Below are positions 2,739-61,802 of a stretch of DNA of 64,000 bases, one piece after another. Both the position numbers and the translations under genes were made by a program. The number at the start of each line of letters is the position of its first letter. Position 1 is the stretch's first letter. This DNA comes from a virus, in the IMG/VR virus record IMGVR_UViG_3300043548_000582, positions 25,235 through 89,234 of that record. One strand, written 5' to 3'. The notes under the pieces were generated by a model, which saw only the letters and a program-made list of their open reading frames with translations, did not search any database and was not told the DNA's origin.

Positions 2739-3034
2739 ACGCAGATCCATCCAACAGTATGATAGAAAATGAACAATGGCATTTGTTTTTATGCTATTGC
2801 ACATTTATAGTAAACATTCAAGGTAAGAAAATGTCTGTGCAGAATGTTTTCGTACATACGCTACAAAATGATAAAATGCGAAACTTATTGAAAAAATTAC
2901 TGTGCATGGACACTGACTTCGATGTTGTTAAAATGTTTTTGGATTTTGATCCCAGCCTTGTCAAGAGCAAGTATGTGACCAAATATCTAAATAATCGAAC
3001 TAAAACTTCGAAAAAAGTTGGGAAAACATCTTGA
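2735..3034 (+). CDS. Hypothetical protein, replication cluster
   Basis: The 99-residue product is not recognised. It starts in an ATGA overlap with the DHH gene, so it is probably translationally coupled to it. The first half is aromatic and hydrophobic. The C-terminus is strongly basic (KTSKKVGKTS), which would suit nucleic-acid contact. An internal ATG at 2831 would give a shorter 67-residue form. Confidence 0.6.
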   Translation: MNADPSNSMIENEQWHLFLCYCTFIVNIQGKKMSVQNVFVHTLQNDKMRNLLKKLLCMDTDFDVVKMFLDFDPSLVKSKYVTKYLNNRTKTSKKVGKTS

Positions 3035-3058
3035 CTTATCGAGTTTTTGGATTAAATT
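3031..3058 (+). promoter_or_regulatory. Possible sigma-70-like promoter upstream of the gp32 gene
   Basis: TTGACT at 3031-3036 is followed by a 16-base spacer and TAAATT at 3053-3058. It would drive the small membrane gene and gp32. The -10 match is poor and AT-rich DNA makes such hits common. Confidence 0.28.
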
Positions 3059-3083
3059 AAATGGGTAAGAAGAATCTGACCGA

Positions 3084-3263
3084 ATGAAAACTCTAATATA
3101 CTTTATTTTGATTTTGATACTACTGAAAGTGTTAAAATTGATTGAATTAAGTTGGTTTTGGATTTTGGCTCCGGTATTTTTACCAGTCTCCATCGTATCG
3201 GCACTTTGTCTAATTGCCGCTATTTGGACGACAATTCGCATATATAAACTAATAAAAGAATAA
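3084..3263 (+). CDS. Small membrane protein, hypothetical
   Basis: This 59-residue product starts MKTLIYFILILILL and contains two hydrophobic stretches (about residues 4-30 and 31-52) consistent with one or two membrane spans; the end IYKLIKE is basic. It fills the gap between the 99-residue gene and gp32. An 8-codon micro-ORF at 3061-3087 (MGKKNLTE) ends in an ATGA overlap with this start and could couple translation. No function can be assigned. Confidence 0.55.
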   Translation: MKTLIYFILILILLKVLKLIELSWFWILAPVFLPVSIVSALCLIAAIWTTIRIYKLIKE

Positions 3264-3267
3264 AAAA

Positions 3268-4158
3268 ATGAGTACTAAAAATAAATTCAATGCTAGCATG
3301 TTTGAAAAGATTAAGGACGCCCTTAATAAAACCACTGAAACTTCCAATAGCGCATTTTCGAATGTGATGAAGTTTCCCGCTGGGAAGACATACACGCTTC
3401 GTATAGTTCCTAATCTGGAAGACCCTGAGAAGACATTCTTCCATCACTATACACACGGTTGGAAGAGCAAGACTACCGGTAGTTATATCTCAACGCTATC
3501 ACTGCAAACATTCGGTGAGCGCGATCCAATCACCGAAACATTCTGGTCACTCATCAAGAGTGATGACAAGAATGAGAAAGAACTTGGTAAAGTTATTCGC
3601 CGCAAGGAGAATTGGTTTGTCAATGTTTATGTAATCGATGATCCATCAAATCCTGACAACAATGGAACTGTCAAGATTTTGAAAATTGGACCACAGATCA
3701 AAAAGATCATCGATGATGCCCTTACCGGAGATGGCGCAGAAGAATTCGGTTATCGAATCTTCGATCTTGGTGAAGATGGTGCAAACCTCAAGATCAAAGC
3801 TGAAACCAGTGGAGATTTCGTAACATTTGCATCTTCTGGCTTCTACAACAAGCCTCAGATCAAGCTATCAGATGAACAAATCGATAAGATTTACGAATCT
3901 GCACATGATCTGGAAGCCATCTATCCCAAGAAGACAGTTGATGAGCTTCAAGAAATCTTGGATGTTCATTTTTACGGAAAGAGTGGTGGAAAGACTTCCA
4001 CACCCAAGACTACAAATGCAACACTGAAGCAACCACCAGTTCTAGATGATGACGATGTGAATGATGATATTCCATTCGATTTCCCATCCAAAACAAGTGG
4101 TTCAAGTGAACCAAGTGAAGATGATATCGATAAAATGCTAGCCGACCTAGAAGACTAA
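3268..4158 (+). CDS. 32: Single-stranded DNA-binding protein (T4 gp32-like)
   Basis: The product coats single-stranded DNA at the fork and organises replication, recombination and repair. Its 296 residues compare with 301 in T4 gp32. The N-terminal part has the OB-fold region beginning FPAGKTYTLRIVPN and continuing FHHYTHGWKSK. A Ser/Thr-rich linker leads to a very acidic C-terminal tail (DDDDVNDDIPFD and SEDDIDKMLADLED), the part that recruits partners in T4. The cysteines of the T4 zinc site are absent: after HHYTHG the sequence reads SLQTFGERDPITE with no Cys. Its place beside helicase, clamp and primase genes supports the call. Confidence 0.85.
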   Translation: MSTKNKFNASMFEKIKDALNKTTETSNSAFSNVMKFPAGKTYTLRIVPNLEDPEKTFFHHYTHGWKSKTTGSYISTLSLQTFGERDPITETFWSLIKSDDKNEKELGKVIRRKENWFVNVYVIDDPSNPDNNGTVKILKIGPQIKKIIDDALTGDGAEEFGYRIFDLGEDGANLKIKAETSGDFVTFASSGFYNKPQIKLSDEQIDKIYESAHDLEAIYPKKTVDELQEILDVHFYGKSGGKTSTPKTTNATLKQPPVLDDDDVNDDIPFDFPSKTSGSSEPSEDDIDKMLADLED

Positions 4159-58951: not shown

Positions 58952-59485
58952 ATGATAAACCGAATATTTTTTGACATCGACGAGACTCTCATTCATACAA
59001 CCTTGAGAGATCCGAATCAAGAGCATATTGTTCTTGCTTTGGATGATTGTATGTATTACACTATTGTCAGACCGTGTGCTAAGGCTCTTATCGATTTTGC
59101 CAGAGATCTCGTAGGAGCAGATCGTGTTCATATTCTAACTACAGCAACAAAAGATTATTCACAAGAAGTGAATCGTTTAGCTGGTTGGGGATTCAAGAAT
59201 GAAGATATCTTCGCCAGAGAAGATATGGCCAGCCATTTCCGATCATTCCCTTCTGCATATGGTGGCTACCACACAGAGTGTGATCCTCATATCTATGCTC
59301 ATAAGGATAATGTTATTATTGATAATCTTCGTCCAAGAGATAACGAACGGAAGATCGCTTTCATTGGAATCAATAGTACTTATGAAACAAACTATCTGAA
59401 AATCGATGACTATTATGGTGTGGAATTCAAGGATTCCACCTTCGAACAAGACGTAAAGAATTTCCTACTAGAAAGAAACAAATAA
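58952..59485 (+). CDS. HAD-superfamily phosphatase (FCP1/NIF-like)
   Basis: The 177-residue product has the nucleophile motif FFDIDETLIHT (DxDET) near residues 6-16, VHILTTATKDYS as the Thr/Ser motif II, and VIIDNLRPRDNERK as the acidic motif. This matches the FCP1/NIF-type branch that hydrolyses phosphoester substrates. The substrate is unknown; protein, nucleotide or polynucleotide ends are possible. Its closeness to the cREC gene suggests a shared pathway. Confidence 0.72.
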   Translation: MINRIFFDIDETLIHTTLRDPNQEHIVLALDDCMYYTIVRPCAKALIDFARDLVGADRVHILTTATKDYSQEVNRLAGWGFKNEDIFAREDMASHFRSFPSAYGGYHTECDPHIYAHKDNVIIDNLRPRDNERKIAFIGINSTYETNYLKIDDYYGVEFKDSTFEQDVKNFLLERNK

Positions 59486-59486
59486 T

Positions 59487-59846
59487 ATGACACTTAATTT
59501 AACCGTATTTTTCACAGTTCTAAACACTTTAAAAATCGATCACTGGCAAACCACAAGCCATGCCGAGCATGCTGCATTGGGAACAGCATATGAAAAATTG
59601 GATGAGTTGTTTGATACATTTATTGAATATTTTTATGGATCGAGAGGACTCCCAACGAATCCAACTGCATATAAAGTCTCATTATCATCCTATTCAGGGG
59701 ATTTGATTTCATCTTACTCGAAATTGAAATTTGAAGTGGTTAGCTACTTGCAGTCGATTTCAGAAAATTATGGAGATTTGAAAAACTTATGTGATGAAAT
59801 CGAGGGCGAATTTAGTCATTTGCTCTATAAACTAAATCAGAAGTGA
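59487..59846 (+). CDS. DUF5856-like small helical protein
   Basis: The 119-residue product contains LKIDHWQTTSHAEHAALGTA followed by YEKLDELFDTFIEYF, which matches a small ferritin/Dps-like helical family (DUF5856) found in phages and large viruses. The histidines and glutamates could bind metal. Function is unknown. It starts one base after the HAD stop. Confidence 0.55.
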   Translation: MTLNLTVFFTVLNTLKIDHWQTTSHAEHAALGTAYEKLDELFDTFIEYFYGSRGLPTNPTAYKVSLSSYSGDLISSYSKLKFEVVSYLQSISENYGDLKNLCDEIEGEFSHLLYKLNQK

Positions 59847-60055
59847 TTCTTCAGCTAAACCCCCCGCTTCCTCTTGAAACACCCAGAGGAAGCGGGTTTG
59901 CTCATTTCTTAATAGATTATTCCCAAGAGCATAATCTTCTTTGGGTTGTTTTTTTAAACGAAAGCGGAGAATGTTGGACTTTTCAAAATTCAGAAGTGAG
60001 ACTTGAAAAAAATCTCTCATTAGGACGAAGCGCAACATCATTAATTAAACGCTAG
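59843..60055 (+). CDS. Conserved small phage protein
   Basis: The 70-residue product reads MILQLNPPLPLETPRGSGFA, then HFLIDYSQEHNLLWVVF and VRLEKNLSLGR. This proline/glycine start with IDYS...WVVF recurs in many phages as a short protein of unknown function. It starts in an ATGA overlap with the previous gene. Confidence 0.65.
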   Translation: MILQLNPPLPLETPRGSGFAHFLIDYSQEHNLLWVVFLNESGECWTFQNSEVRLEKNLSLGRSATSLIKR

Positions 60056-60069
60056 GATAAGATCGGGGC

Positions 60070-60111
60070 ATGCAAACAAAGCAAGTAATCGTAGTCCGTA
60101 AGGATAAATAA
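60070..60111 (+). pseudogene. Truncated 5' end of peptidyl-tRNA hydrolase gene
   Basis: ATG 60070 opens a 13-codon frame MQTKQVIVVRKDK that ends in TAA. VIVVRK is the conserved first strand of the Pth2 fold and is repeated in the intact gene downstream (KMVIVVRKFPN). The remnant sits immediately before the endonuclease gene. Its stop codon is the first TAA of the endonuclease promoter box. Read as the original N-terminus cut off by the insertion. Confidence 0.65.
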
Positions 60112-60116
60112 TTATA
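60105..60116 (+). promoter_or_regulatory. Late-type promoter for the second GIY-YIG gene
   Basis: TAAATA at 60105-60110 lies 5 bases before ATG 60116. It is the only such box found in the early operon and seems to have come with the endonuclease gene. Confidence 0.6.
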
Positions 60117-61000
60117 TGATTGTTTACTTATGCACTAATATAATTACAAAAAAACATTACGTTGGAATAACATCTCAAACTCTTCAAAAAAGAAAAAGAG
60201 TCCATAAGCACAACGCTCTTACAAAAAATCTTCCAAATTATTTTTACAGATCTATTAGAAAATATGGATGGGATAATTTTATATGGAACATTATAGAAGA
60301 TGATGTGTATGACTTTGCAATTTTGAATTCTAAAGAGATAGAGTATATTGAAAAATACAATGCCTTCACTAATGGTTATAATATGACGATTGGAGGTGAT
60401 GGTACAGTTGGTTACAAGCATACAGAAGAGGCTAAAAATAAAATATCCAACGCAACCAAAGGAATTGCAAAAGGTCCAATGTCAGAAGATCATTACAATA
60501 AAATTTCTAAAATTAATAAATCTAGATGTGGAAAAACATATGAAGAATTGTATGGCGTGGAAAAAGCAACAGAATTAAAGGCGGGTTTATCTAGATATGC
60601 TAAAGAATTACATGATAATCAGAATCATAAAGAATGGCTGAAAATGTCATACGATGAGAAATATAATGAAAAAGCAGAACAAATTAAATCTAAAATGTCC
60701 ACAACGCATAAAAATAAATTAGTAAACGGAAAACGTGCGAACATTAGTGAAGCTGGCCTACAAAGAATGAGAGATTCTAAACTTGGATCAAAAAATAATA
60801 ATTATGTTGAGGTTGATATCGAATCACAGGAATTAATAATTCGTTTATATAAAACATATGGAAAAATAGTTCCAGAAATTTTACACGAATCTGGATATAG
60901 TAAACATGTAATTAAAAGATTTTTAAAGGATATAAAAATATATGCAGGAAGAAAAAAATACAAAGATGGTAATTGTAGTAAGAAAATTCCCAAATCTTAG
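60116..61000 (+). CDS. GIY-YIG homing endonuclease with NUMOD3-like repeats
   Basis: The 294-residue product has MIVYLCTNIITKKHYVGITS at the N-terminus (the GIY-YIG pair as VYL and YVGI), RSIRKYGWDNF with a conserved Arg/Lys, and IEYIEKYNAFTNGYNMTIGG with the catalytic Glu. GYKHTEEAKNKISNATKG is a NUMOD3 DNA-binding motif, and a final helix-turn-helix-like segment ends GYSKHVIKRFLKD. It is inserted between the 5' stub and body of the Pth2 gene, and its last 59 bases overlap the new 5' end of that gene in another frame. Confidence 0.88.
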   Translation: MIVYLCTNIITKKHYVGITSQTLQKRKRVHKHNALTKNLPNYFYRSIRKYGWDNFIWNIIEDDVYDFAILNSKEIEYIEKYNAFTNGYNMTIGGDGTVGYKHTEEAKNKISNATKGIAKGPMSEDHYNKISKINKSRCGKTYEELYGVEKATELKAGLSRYAKELHDNQNHKEWLKMSYDEKYNEKAEQIKSKMSTTHKNKLVNGKRANISEAGLQRMRDSKLGSKNNNYVEVDIESQELIIRLYKTYGKIVPEILHESGYSKHVIKRFLKDIKIYAGRKKYKDGNCSKKIPKS

Positions 61001-61373
61001 GACTGGAAAATATTGTAGTCAAGTCGCCCACGCCTCAATGGCCTTCCTTACAAAAGGTGGTGGCGTTTACTGCAATCTTGGAACTGGTATCCCACAAGTC
61101 AATTACTTTATGTCTTCAGTTGAAGACTATCATGAGATGGAGATCAACCACTGGCTTCGTAACTCCTTCCGTAAGATCTGTGTCTATGTCAACAGCGAAG
61201 AGGAACTTGAAGCAGTTCATCAGAAAGCTCTTGACTCTGGATTGGTTTCACATATGATTGAGGACAACGGAGCAACTGAATTCAACGGTGTGAAGACCAA
61301 GACCTGTTGTGCAATTGGTCCACATGTTTGCTCTAAATTCGCTGATATTACCGACCATCTGCCATTACTATGA
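60942..61373 (+). CDS. pth2: Peptidyl-tRNA hydrolase (Pth2 family), rebuilt N-terminus
   Basis: Pth2 enzymes free tRNA from prematurely released peptidyl-tRNA. The core begins KMVIVVRKFPNLRTGKYCSQ followed by VAHASMAFL, with the catalytic Lys and the GK...QVAHA motif. TCCAIGPHVCSKFADITDHL is the C-terminal signature. The annotated start (143 residues) has an AAAGGA at 60925-60930; ATG 60966 (135 residues) begins exactly at the family core. Both lie inside the endonuclease gene, so residues before FPN are encoded by the inserted element. Confidence 0.82.
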   Translation: MQEEKNTKMVIVVRKFPNLRTGKYCSQVAHASMAFLTKGGGVYCNLGTGIPQVNYFMSSVEDYHEMEINHWLRNSFRKICVYVNSEEELEAVHQKALDSGLVSHMIEDNGATEFNGVKTKTCCAIGPHVCSKFADITDHLPLL

Positions 61374-61558
61374 AAGAAAAAACACTATACTATCTTGTGG
61401 CATGGAGCGATGACCGATCCACATCATATTCATATGTATCGGTCGAGGATATTCAGAAAGATTTTGATAAGTACTCACACAATCGTTGCACAATCTACAA
61501 AAAAGTGGATAAAGAAGAACTACTAAATTTTGATCGTGAAGAACTGCCATTACTATGA
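61370..61558 (+). CDS. Hypothetical small protein
   Basis: The 62-residue product (MKEKTLYYLVAWSDDRSTSY...) has a beta strand and helix, with FDKYSHNRCTIYKKVDKEEL. It begins in an ATGA overlap with pth2 and overlaps the next gene by 4 bases. No family is recognised. Confidence 0.6.
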   Translation: MKEKTLYYLVAWSDDRSTSYSYVSVEDIQKDFDKYSHNRCTIYKKVDKEELLNFDREELPLL

Positions 61559-61791
61559 ATAATCCACATATCAGCAAAGAAGCTTTCCAAAAAATCTGGA
61601 ACGAAACATTAGGTCAAGTTGAAGATTTGGAATTTGAATGCTCTCCTGAAGTTAAAGAACATCTTATAAAAATTTCAAATGGTGAATACACCGATGAAGA
61701 AATTATAGAACATCTACAATTAGACATTTATATTAAACTGCCAATGCCTCAGAAATTTATTACGGTTGATTTCGATGTTAAGGAACTCTAA
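61555..61791 (+). CDS. Small protein with VbhA-antitoxin-like helices
   Basis: The 78-residue product has ISKEAFQKIWNETLGQVEDL, then SPEVKEHLIKISNGEYTDEE. The order (helix, 'SPEV', helix, 'G-E-Y-T-D-E-E') resembles the antitoxin VbhA motif that blocks Fic toxins. The C-terminus is a short beta part (KFITVDFDVKEL). No Fic gene lies in the window, so a solitary anti-toxin is only a suggestion. Confidence 0.5.
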   Translation: MNNPHISKEAFQKIWNETLGQVEDLEFECSPEVKEHLIKISNGEYTDEEIIEHLQLDIYIKLPMPQKFITVDFDVKEL

Positions 61792-61802
61792 TAAAATAAA
61801 TT

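What the first reader, a model, noticed from the sequence alone, without database searches (positions are those of the whole stretch)
60044..61373. Homing endonuclease gene inserted in pth2 and rebuilding its N-terminus
The start of a Pth2 gene (MQTKQVIVVRKDK) lies at 60070 and stops in the endonuclease promoter. At the other end the endonuclease gene overlaps a full Pth2 frame that again encodes MVIVVRK. The two versions are similar in protein but differ at synonymous and other positions (GTAATCGTAGTCCGTAAG versus GTAATTGTAGTAAGAAAA). Insertion therefore seems to have split the gene while the element's 3' end supplies a working substitute for the lost segment.
Basis: seen in the sequence. Interest (0 to 1): 0.82.

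Follow-up and report, generated by a model that had tools for sequence, protein, structure and literature searches.

The report
Selfish gene repairing its target gene
In this uncultured phage, and at the same codon of the same gene in at least two other phage lineages, a selfish DNA-cutting gene has inserted into the peptidyl-tRNA hydrolase gene pth2 while its own tail supplies a new ribosome site, start codon and first codons, so the broken gene still encodes a full protein.

Summary
Confirmed and extended. A GIY-YIG homing endonuclease (HEG, 60116-61000) separates a 13-codon pth2 stub (60070-60111) from a complete Pth2 frame (60942-61373) that begins inside the HEG's 3' end. Relatives make this an insertion: about 250 viral pth2 loci were scanned, and nearly all have one uninterrupted pth2. 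A second phage (L032; identical in a second IMG/VR record, L033) and a divergent third (L071) carry a stub, an HEG and a rebuilt start. Joining their flanks gives clean Pth2 at the same point (VIV|xRK). The 3' tail (MQEEKNTKMVIV) is nearly identical in the window, L032 and an HEG-less scar-like allele (L011), although the pth2 bodies differ. All its substitutions are silent for Pth2 and change the HEG frame. The HEG's last ~17 residues there are predicted disordered. I infer that the HEG cuts pth2 near codons 8-12, inserts there, couples its translation to the stub, and hands over a Shine-Dalgarno site, start codon and recoded N-terminus. Cleavage and expression are untested. The nearest precedent is fungal mitochondrial HEGs that replace C-termini; this is the mirror image. 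I found no phage precedent, but the paper search was limited to open-licence texts.

The parts
60070..60111 (+). 5' stub of the resident pth2: MQTKQVIVVRKDK*; homologous to the normal first ~9-12 codons of pth2 in relatives
60094..60105 (+). left junction zone of the element. By comparison with L032 the insertion point is after GTAATCGTA (60093); the stub keeps up to 4 more codons (V R K D, where D may be formed by the element)
60116..61000 (+). GIY-YIG homing endonuclease gene (294 aa): GIY-YIG catalytic domain ~2-89, NUMOD3 99-122, C-terminal helix-turn-helix ~235-272, disordered tail 278-294
60925..60931 (+). AAAGGAT, Shine-Dalgarno-like site inside the HEG for the rebuilt pth2
60940..60977 (+). 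38-nt 3' tail of the element encoding the new Pth2 N-terminus MQEEKNTKMVIV; 37/38 identical in L011 and 35/38 in L032 although the pth2 bodies differ
60942..61373 (+). complete pth2 (143 aa) read from the element-supplied start; Pfam PTH2 PF01981, E 2.3e-24
60978..61373 (+). pth2 body downstream of the element's right boundary (VRKFPNLRTGK...)

Best explanation
A free-standing GIY-YIG HEG has inserted into pth2 at about codon 8/9. Its 3' end carries a ribosome-binding site, a start codon and a recoded first 12 codons, so the gene is re-formed as a complete Pth2 frame downstream, while the resident first codons remain upstream as a dead stub. Inferred cycle: the HEG cuts HEG-less pth2 in its conserved 5' region (VIVxRK). 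Repair from the HEG-bearing copy inserts the element, sometimes with some flanking pth2 sequence. The stub's translation then feeds the HEG (its start lies close to, or overlaps, the stub's stop), and the HEG's tail starts Pth2. Because the site is split on the left and recoded on the right, the occupied allele should no longer be cut. Shown by sequence: anatomy, insertion at the same codon in three lineages, mobility of the tail between different pth2 bodies, and selection on the Pth2 frame of the tail. Inferred: cleavage, translational coupling, expression of Pth2, and immunity.
For: Nearly all relatives have one uninterrupted pth2 starting M(N)TKQVIVxRK. Joining flanks gives clean Pth2 at the same point in the window (MQTKQVIV|VRKFPNLRTGK), L032 (MNTKQVIV|MRKFKGLRTGK; 734-bp element) and L071 (MGVKQVIVV|RKDLNCRKGK). 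Residues 1-12 are 92-97% identical in DNA to L032/L011 against at most 79% for other alleles, while the next 26 codons fall to 65%/54%, so the right boundary of the mobile segment is the codon where the L032 stub stops. All three tail substitutions are silent in Pth2 and change the HEG frame. The HEG model has an I-TevI-like domain (E 8.4e-4) and a confident C-terminal helix-turn-helix, with the overlap disordered. I-TevI-type catalytic positions are conserved (Y, R26, H30, E74, N89). The rebuilt start has a Shine-Dalgarno site in the window, L032 and L071. L071's HEG start overlaps its stub's stop (ATGA) and the window's is 4 nt after it.
Against: No cleavage, RNA or protein data. The window's left junction is about 9-12 nt further into pth2 than in L032, so stub and body overlap by V-R-K(-D), which needs co-conversion or an imprecise junction. 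In the window the stub's own AAGGAT could act as a Shine-Dalgarno site for the HEG, so coupling is not proved. The window pth2 is mosaic, with a breakpoint near codon 45, but an HEG-less allele (L001) is mosaic too, so that is not diagnostic. The tail's origin is unresolved.
Confidence: 0.82

Rival explanations
1. Cassette replacement rather than site-precise insertion: a donor HEG+pth2 unit, with the HEG just 5' of an intact pth2, recombined into a resident pth2. The right crossover lay somewhere in the body and the left end was joined illegitimately, leaving the stub.
For: L157/L158 has an HEG followed by a pth2 with its own complete 5' end and a longer, decayed stub-like relic (MDT*LVIMLKGKLSAQVA). 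L308 has an HNH HEG directly 5' of an intact pth2 with no stub. The window body is mosaic with a breakpoint near codon 45.
Against: In L032 the junctions are clean with no codon lost or duplicated. In the window, L032 and L011 the shared DNA stops at the same codon.
Confidence: 0.15
2. The HEG sits in an intron, or the ribosome or mRNA bypasses it, so that the stub is joined to the body.
For: Stub and body would join in frame at VIV|VRK.
Against: No Rfam intron match. The HEG starts 4 nt after the stub and its ORF runs into the Pth2 frame. The tail is conserved at protein level in the Pth2 frame and has its own Shine-Dalgarno site. The stub decays in L157.
Confidence: 0.03
3. A tandem duplication of pth2 came first; the HEG later landed between or in one copy and the upstream copy decayed.
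For: It would also give a partial upstream copy and a complete downstream copy (anatomy).
Against: Stubs end exactly at the HEG in three lineages, at the same or nearly the same codon. No stub-like or tandem pth2 copy was seen upstream of pth2 in HEG-less loci. The downstream 5' end is not the closest relative of the stub; it belongs to the HEG tail family.
Confidence: 0.03

Closest known systems
Fungal mitochondrial mobile ORFs (mORFs) in Allomyces atp6 and Glomus atp6/atp9/cox2/nad3 (PMC3630166)
   Same: An HEG ORF inserted into a protein gene; the element brings a foreign terminal coding segment that replaces the resident one; the resident segment is left behind as a diverged duplicate; clues to horizontal transfer
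   Different: There the C-terminus is replaced, with the segment at the element's 5' side. Here the N-terminus with start codon and ribosome site is replaced, at the 3' side, in phages, and partly overlaps the HEG's coding sequence. mRNA was shown there, not here
Free-standing seg/mob endonucleases of T4 (intronless homing; PMC2988022)
   Same: Free-standing GIY-YIG genes next to their target genes, often without their own ribosome site and overlapping the upstream ORF (translational coupling); promoters for downstream genes can lie within them
   Different: T4 seg genes lie between genes; no duplicated 5' stub plus rebuilt N-terminus is described in the passages read
mobE in nrdA of Aeromonas phage Aeh1 and mobA in T4 topoisomerase (PMC2988022; PMC5009743)
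   Same: An HEG inserted inside an essential phage gene
   Different: Those genes are split into two working polypeptides (T4 gene 60 also carries a bypassed 50-nt insert). Here the downstream gene is complete and the upstream piece is only 13 codons

Membership tests
GIY-YIG homing endonucleases | GIY-YIG catalytic domain with the conserved Y, R, H, E, N positions | tested here: met
   PHROG homing endonuclease hits (3.3e-21); Pfam GIY-YIG E 2.1e-4, just under the gathering score (22.0 vs 22.6); invariant Y4, Y15, G17, H30, E74, N89 and near-invariant R26; I-TevI catalytic domain best PDB match
GIY-YIG homing endonucleases | site-specific cutting of the HEG-less allele and homing | not testable with these tools
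   Only the insertion pattern is seen
Mitochondrial mORF-type terminal-replacement elements | HEG inserted in a protein gene, with the resident terminus left as a diverged duplicate | tested here: met
   Stub in the window, L032, L071
Mitochondrial mORF-type terminal-replacement elements | the substitute segment travels with the element | tested here: met
   Tail 92-97% identical between window, L032 and L011 with different bodies
Mitochondrial mORF-type terminal-replacement elements | the C-terminus is replaced, by a segment at the element's 5' side | tested here: not met
   Here the N-terminus is replaced, from the 3' side; so it works like them but is not filed as a member
T4-type intronless homing (seg/mob) | free-standing, outside any intron or intein | tested here: met
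   No Rfam intron hit; the HEG ORF fills the insert
T4-type intronless homing (seg/mob) | HEG-bearing allele resistant to cutting | not testable with these tools
   Only indirect: the site is split and the residue before VIV changed from the usual Q
Split genes (Aeh1 nrdA type) | both pieces encode parts of the working enzyme | tested here: not met
   The downstream frame alone covers all of PTH2 (profile positions 2-115 of 115)
Group I/II introns | ribozyme core in the insert | tested here: not met
   No Rfam intron match in 59400-61800

The most novel reading that the evidence does not exclude
Phage HEGs repeatedly and independently evolve a self-healing 3' end (ribosome site, start codon, recoded first codons of the target). 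The new start keeps the target gene working, and the changed codons make the occupied allele immune to the enzyme. This would be a general route by which free-standing HEGs colonise coding sequences without introns or inteins.
Probability: 0.45. Interest if true: 0.72.

Novelty: new variant of a known kind. Interest (0 to 1): 0.6.

Why it matters
Homing endonuclease genes usually avoid harming their host gene by hiding in introns or inteins, or by sitting between genes. Here is a fourth way, seen in sequence: break the gene but bring a new beginning for it. Because occupied, empty and possibly post-loss alleles are all present in public viral contigs, one can test directly how a free-standing element can enter a coding sequence without destroying it. 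Annotation pipelines would record only an HEG upstream of an intact pth2 and drop the 13-codon stub, so such cases may be common and overlooked.

Tried and rejected
Intron or splicing: no Rfam match. Split-enzyme reading: rejected, the downstream frame is complete. A natural MQEEKNTKM N-terminus unrelated to HEGs: M at this place does occur in three HEG-less pth2 (L098, L100, L178), but MQEEKNTKM was found only in the window, L032/L033 and L011. A pattern scan for the HEG C-terminus in its own frame gave, besides L011's contig, two unrelated methyltransferase-like genes (L026, L027). L104, the next-closest HEG, has its own AGGAGG site and its apparent stub match is chance. HEGs from bacterial and archaeal genome contigs (L229-L238): no pth2 was found in the three looked up. 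Seven pth2 loci of named phages or complete metagenomic phage genomes showed no HEG directly upstream. Mosaicism of the window pth2 was rejected as proof of homing because a control allele is mosaic as well. A promoter for pth2 inside the HEG: hits at chance level.

Full report
What was checked. The window is part of an 89,234-base IMG/VR virus record. No RNA family of intron type was matched in 59400-61800. The HEG and pth2 each occur once in the record.

Empty sites. About 250 viral loci encoding Pth2 were fetched (169 distinct proteins). Nearly all have one uninterrupted gene beginning M(N)TKQVIVxRK or a close variant. Loci that share window genes around pth2, such as L006 (58952-, pth2- and 63165-type genes in order), have no HEG at pth2. 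So the stub is the ordinary start of pth2, not a separate gene.

Second case. L032 (IMGVR_UViG_3300048016_000135), whose locus is identical in a second IMG/VR record (L033, IMGVR_UViG_3300046327_000130), has a stub ATGAATACTAAACAAGTCATTGTG, then a 244-aa HEG, then a Pth2 frame whose first 12 residues are again MQEEKNTKMVIV. Joining the flanks of the 734-bp element gives MNTKQVIV|MRKFKGLRTGK with no codon lost or duplicated. The same join gives MQTKQVIV|VRKFPNLRTGK in the window. Syntenic loci L009 and L029 are HEG-less at pth2.

Third case. L071 is a more distant phage (Pth2 38% identical). Its stub MGVKQVIVV runs on to a TGA that overlaps the HEG's ATG. The HEG (about 30% identical to the window's) ends in a TAA that overlaps the new Pth2 start MSIKAVIVF, preceded by GGAGG. 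Joined flanks: MGVKQVIVV|RKDLNCRKGK. The tail differs from that of the window and L032, so the trick is either old or arose more than once.

The tail is part of the mobile unit. Over Pth2 residues 1-12 the window is 97% (L011) and 92% (L032) identical in DNA, against 57-79% for the other alleles. Over the next 26 codons it is only 54% and 65% identical to them. L011 carries this tail without an HEG. It has no ribosome site at the tail ATG, and its frame now opens at an ATGA overlap with the upstream gene, which reads best as a scar left after loss of the HEG; an ancestral source cannot be excluded.

Which frame is selected. The substitutions in the tail among window, L032 and L011 are all silent for Pth2 (MQEEKNTKMVIV in all) and change the HEG frame (DGNC, NGDS, DGDC). 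The HEG structure model is confident for the GIY-YIG domain (best PDB match I-TevI, E 8.4e-4, TM 0.76 by target length) and for a C-terminal helix-turn-helix at 235-272, but disordered from 278 on, the part encoded in the overlap. So the useful HEG protein ends where Pth2 begins, and the overlap serves Pth2. Between the window and L032 the HEGs are 45-53% identical over residues 1-242 but 91% (DNA 93%) over 243-275, so the DNA-binding end and tail seem to have been exchanged recently as a block.

Translation signals. The rebuilt starts have Shine-Dalgarno sites (window and L032 AAAGGAT, -5.4 kcal/mol; L071 GGAGG, -9.3), while the HEG starts in L032 and L071 have none (0.9 and 2.0). For scale, random positions in the window reach -5.9 at the 5% and -4.1 at the 10% quantile, so the AAAGGAT site alone is only moderately unusual. 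The window's HEG has an AAGGAT that lies within the stub's last codons. Position and lack of own sites suggest that the HEGs use the stub's translation, as is described for several T4 HEGs (PMC2988022); this is inference.

Other HEGs at pth2. L157/L158 has a GIY-YIG gene with a zinc-finger tail directly 5' of a full pth2, preceded by a decayed relic reading MDT*LVIMLKGKLSAQVA. L308 has an HNH gene with a related zinc-finger tail at the same place and no stub. These support the rival that some cases are replacement by a whole HEG+pth2 cassette.

Immunity. The residue before VIV is Q in about 161 of 169 distinct Pth2 proteins. It is M, M, M, A in the window, L032, L011, L071, and non-Q otherwise only in L098, L100, L177 and L178. 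A changed K-Q codon pair together with the split site could prevent self-cutting. This is suggestive only; the cases represent two lineages.

Against what is known. The nearest kind is the fungal mitochondrial mORF that inserts into atp6, atp9, cox2 or nad3 and brings a foreign C-terminus, leaving the resident one downstream (PMC3630166). The present case is the mirror image, in phages, with start codon and ribosome site included. Aeh1 nrdA/mobE and T4 mobA split genes into two working parts, which is not the case here (PMC2988022, PMC5009743). The paper searches found no phage report of a rebuilt N-terminus, but only open-licence papers are held, so absence there is weak evidence.

Verdict. 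Insertion of an HEG into pth2 with an element-supplied new 5' end is well supported by sequence. Homing, coupling, expression and immunity are inferred.

Noticed in passing
L136:2056-3641: GIY-YIG HEG (2900-3583) near the 3' end of a gene with homologs in Lak phages; the gene now ends ...VKVKKLEKRMTNIQIPWVEENMIKWKKKNGII* and a second diverged C-terminus (REVKKLETKIHKFEVPWGKKKD*) follows the HEG: a possible phage case of C-terminal replacement.
   Followed up: partly
L308:1732-2905: An HNH HEG whose NUMOD/zinc-finger tail is ~50% identical to that of the GIY-YIG HEG of L157; both lie directly 5' of pth2: different catalytic domains sharing one targeting tail.
   Followed up: partly
L011:3944-4423: HEG-less pth2 with the HEG's 38-nt tail; its start overlaps the stop of the upstream gene: likely scar of a lost HEG.
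   Followed up: partly
60978-61130 and pth2 of L001, L005, L012, L032 versus L002, L010: Phage pth2 has two alternative N-terminal blocks (RKFPNLRTGKYCSQ and RKDLNMRKGKMIAQ) that are shuffled against the C-terminal part, breakpoint near codon 45.
   Followed up: partly
59863-59896: 12-bp perfect inverted repeat CCCGCTTCCTCT/AGAGGAAGCGGG with a 10-nt loop followed by a T-rich stretch just after the 59487-59846 gene: probable terminator, missed by the scan because of its loop length (read by eye).
   Followed up: no
window 60843-60980 versus L032:3900-4040: HEG residues 243-275 and the tail are ~93% identical in DNA while the rest of the two HEGs is 55-59%: recent block exchange of the DNA-binding end.
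   Followed up: partly
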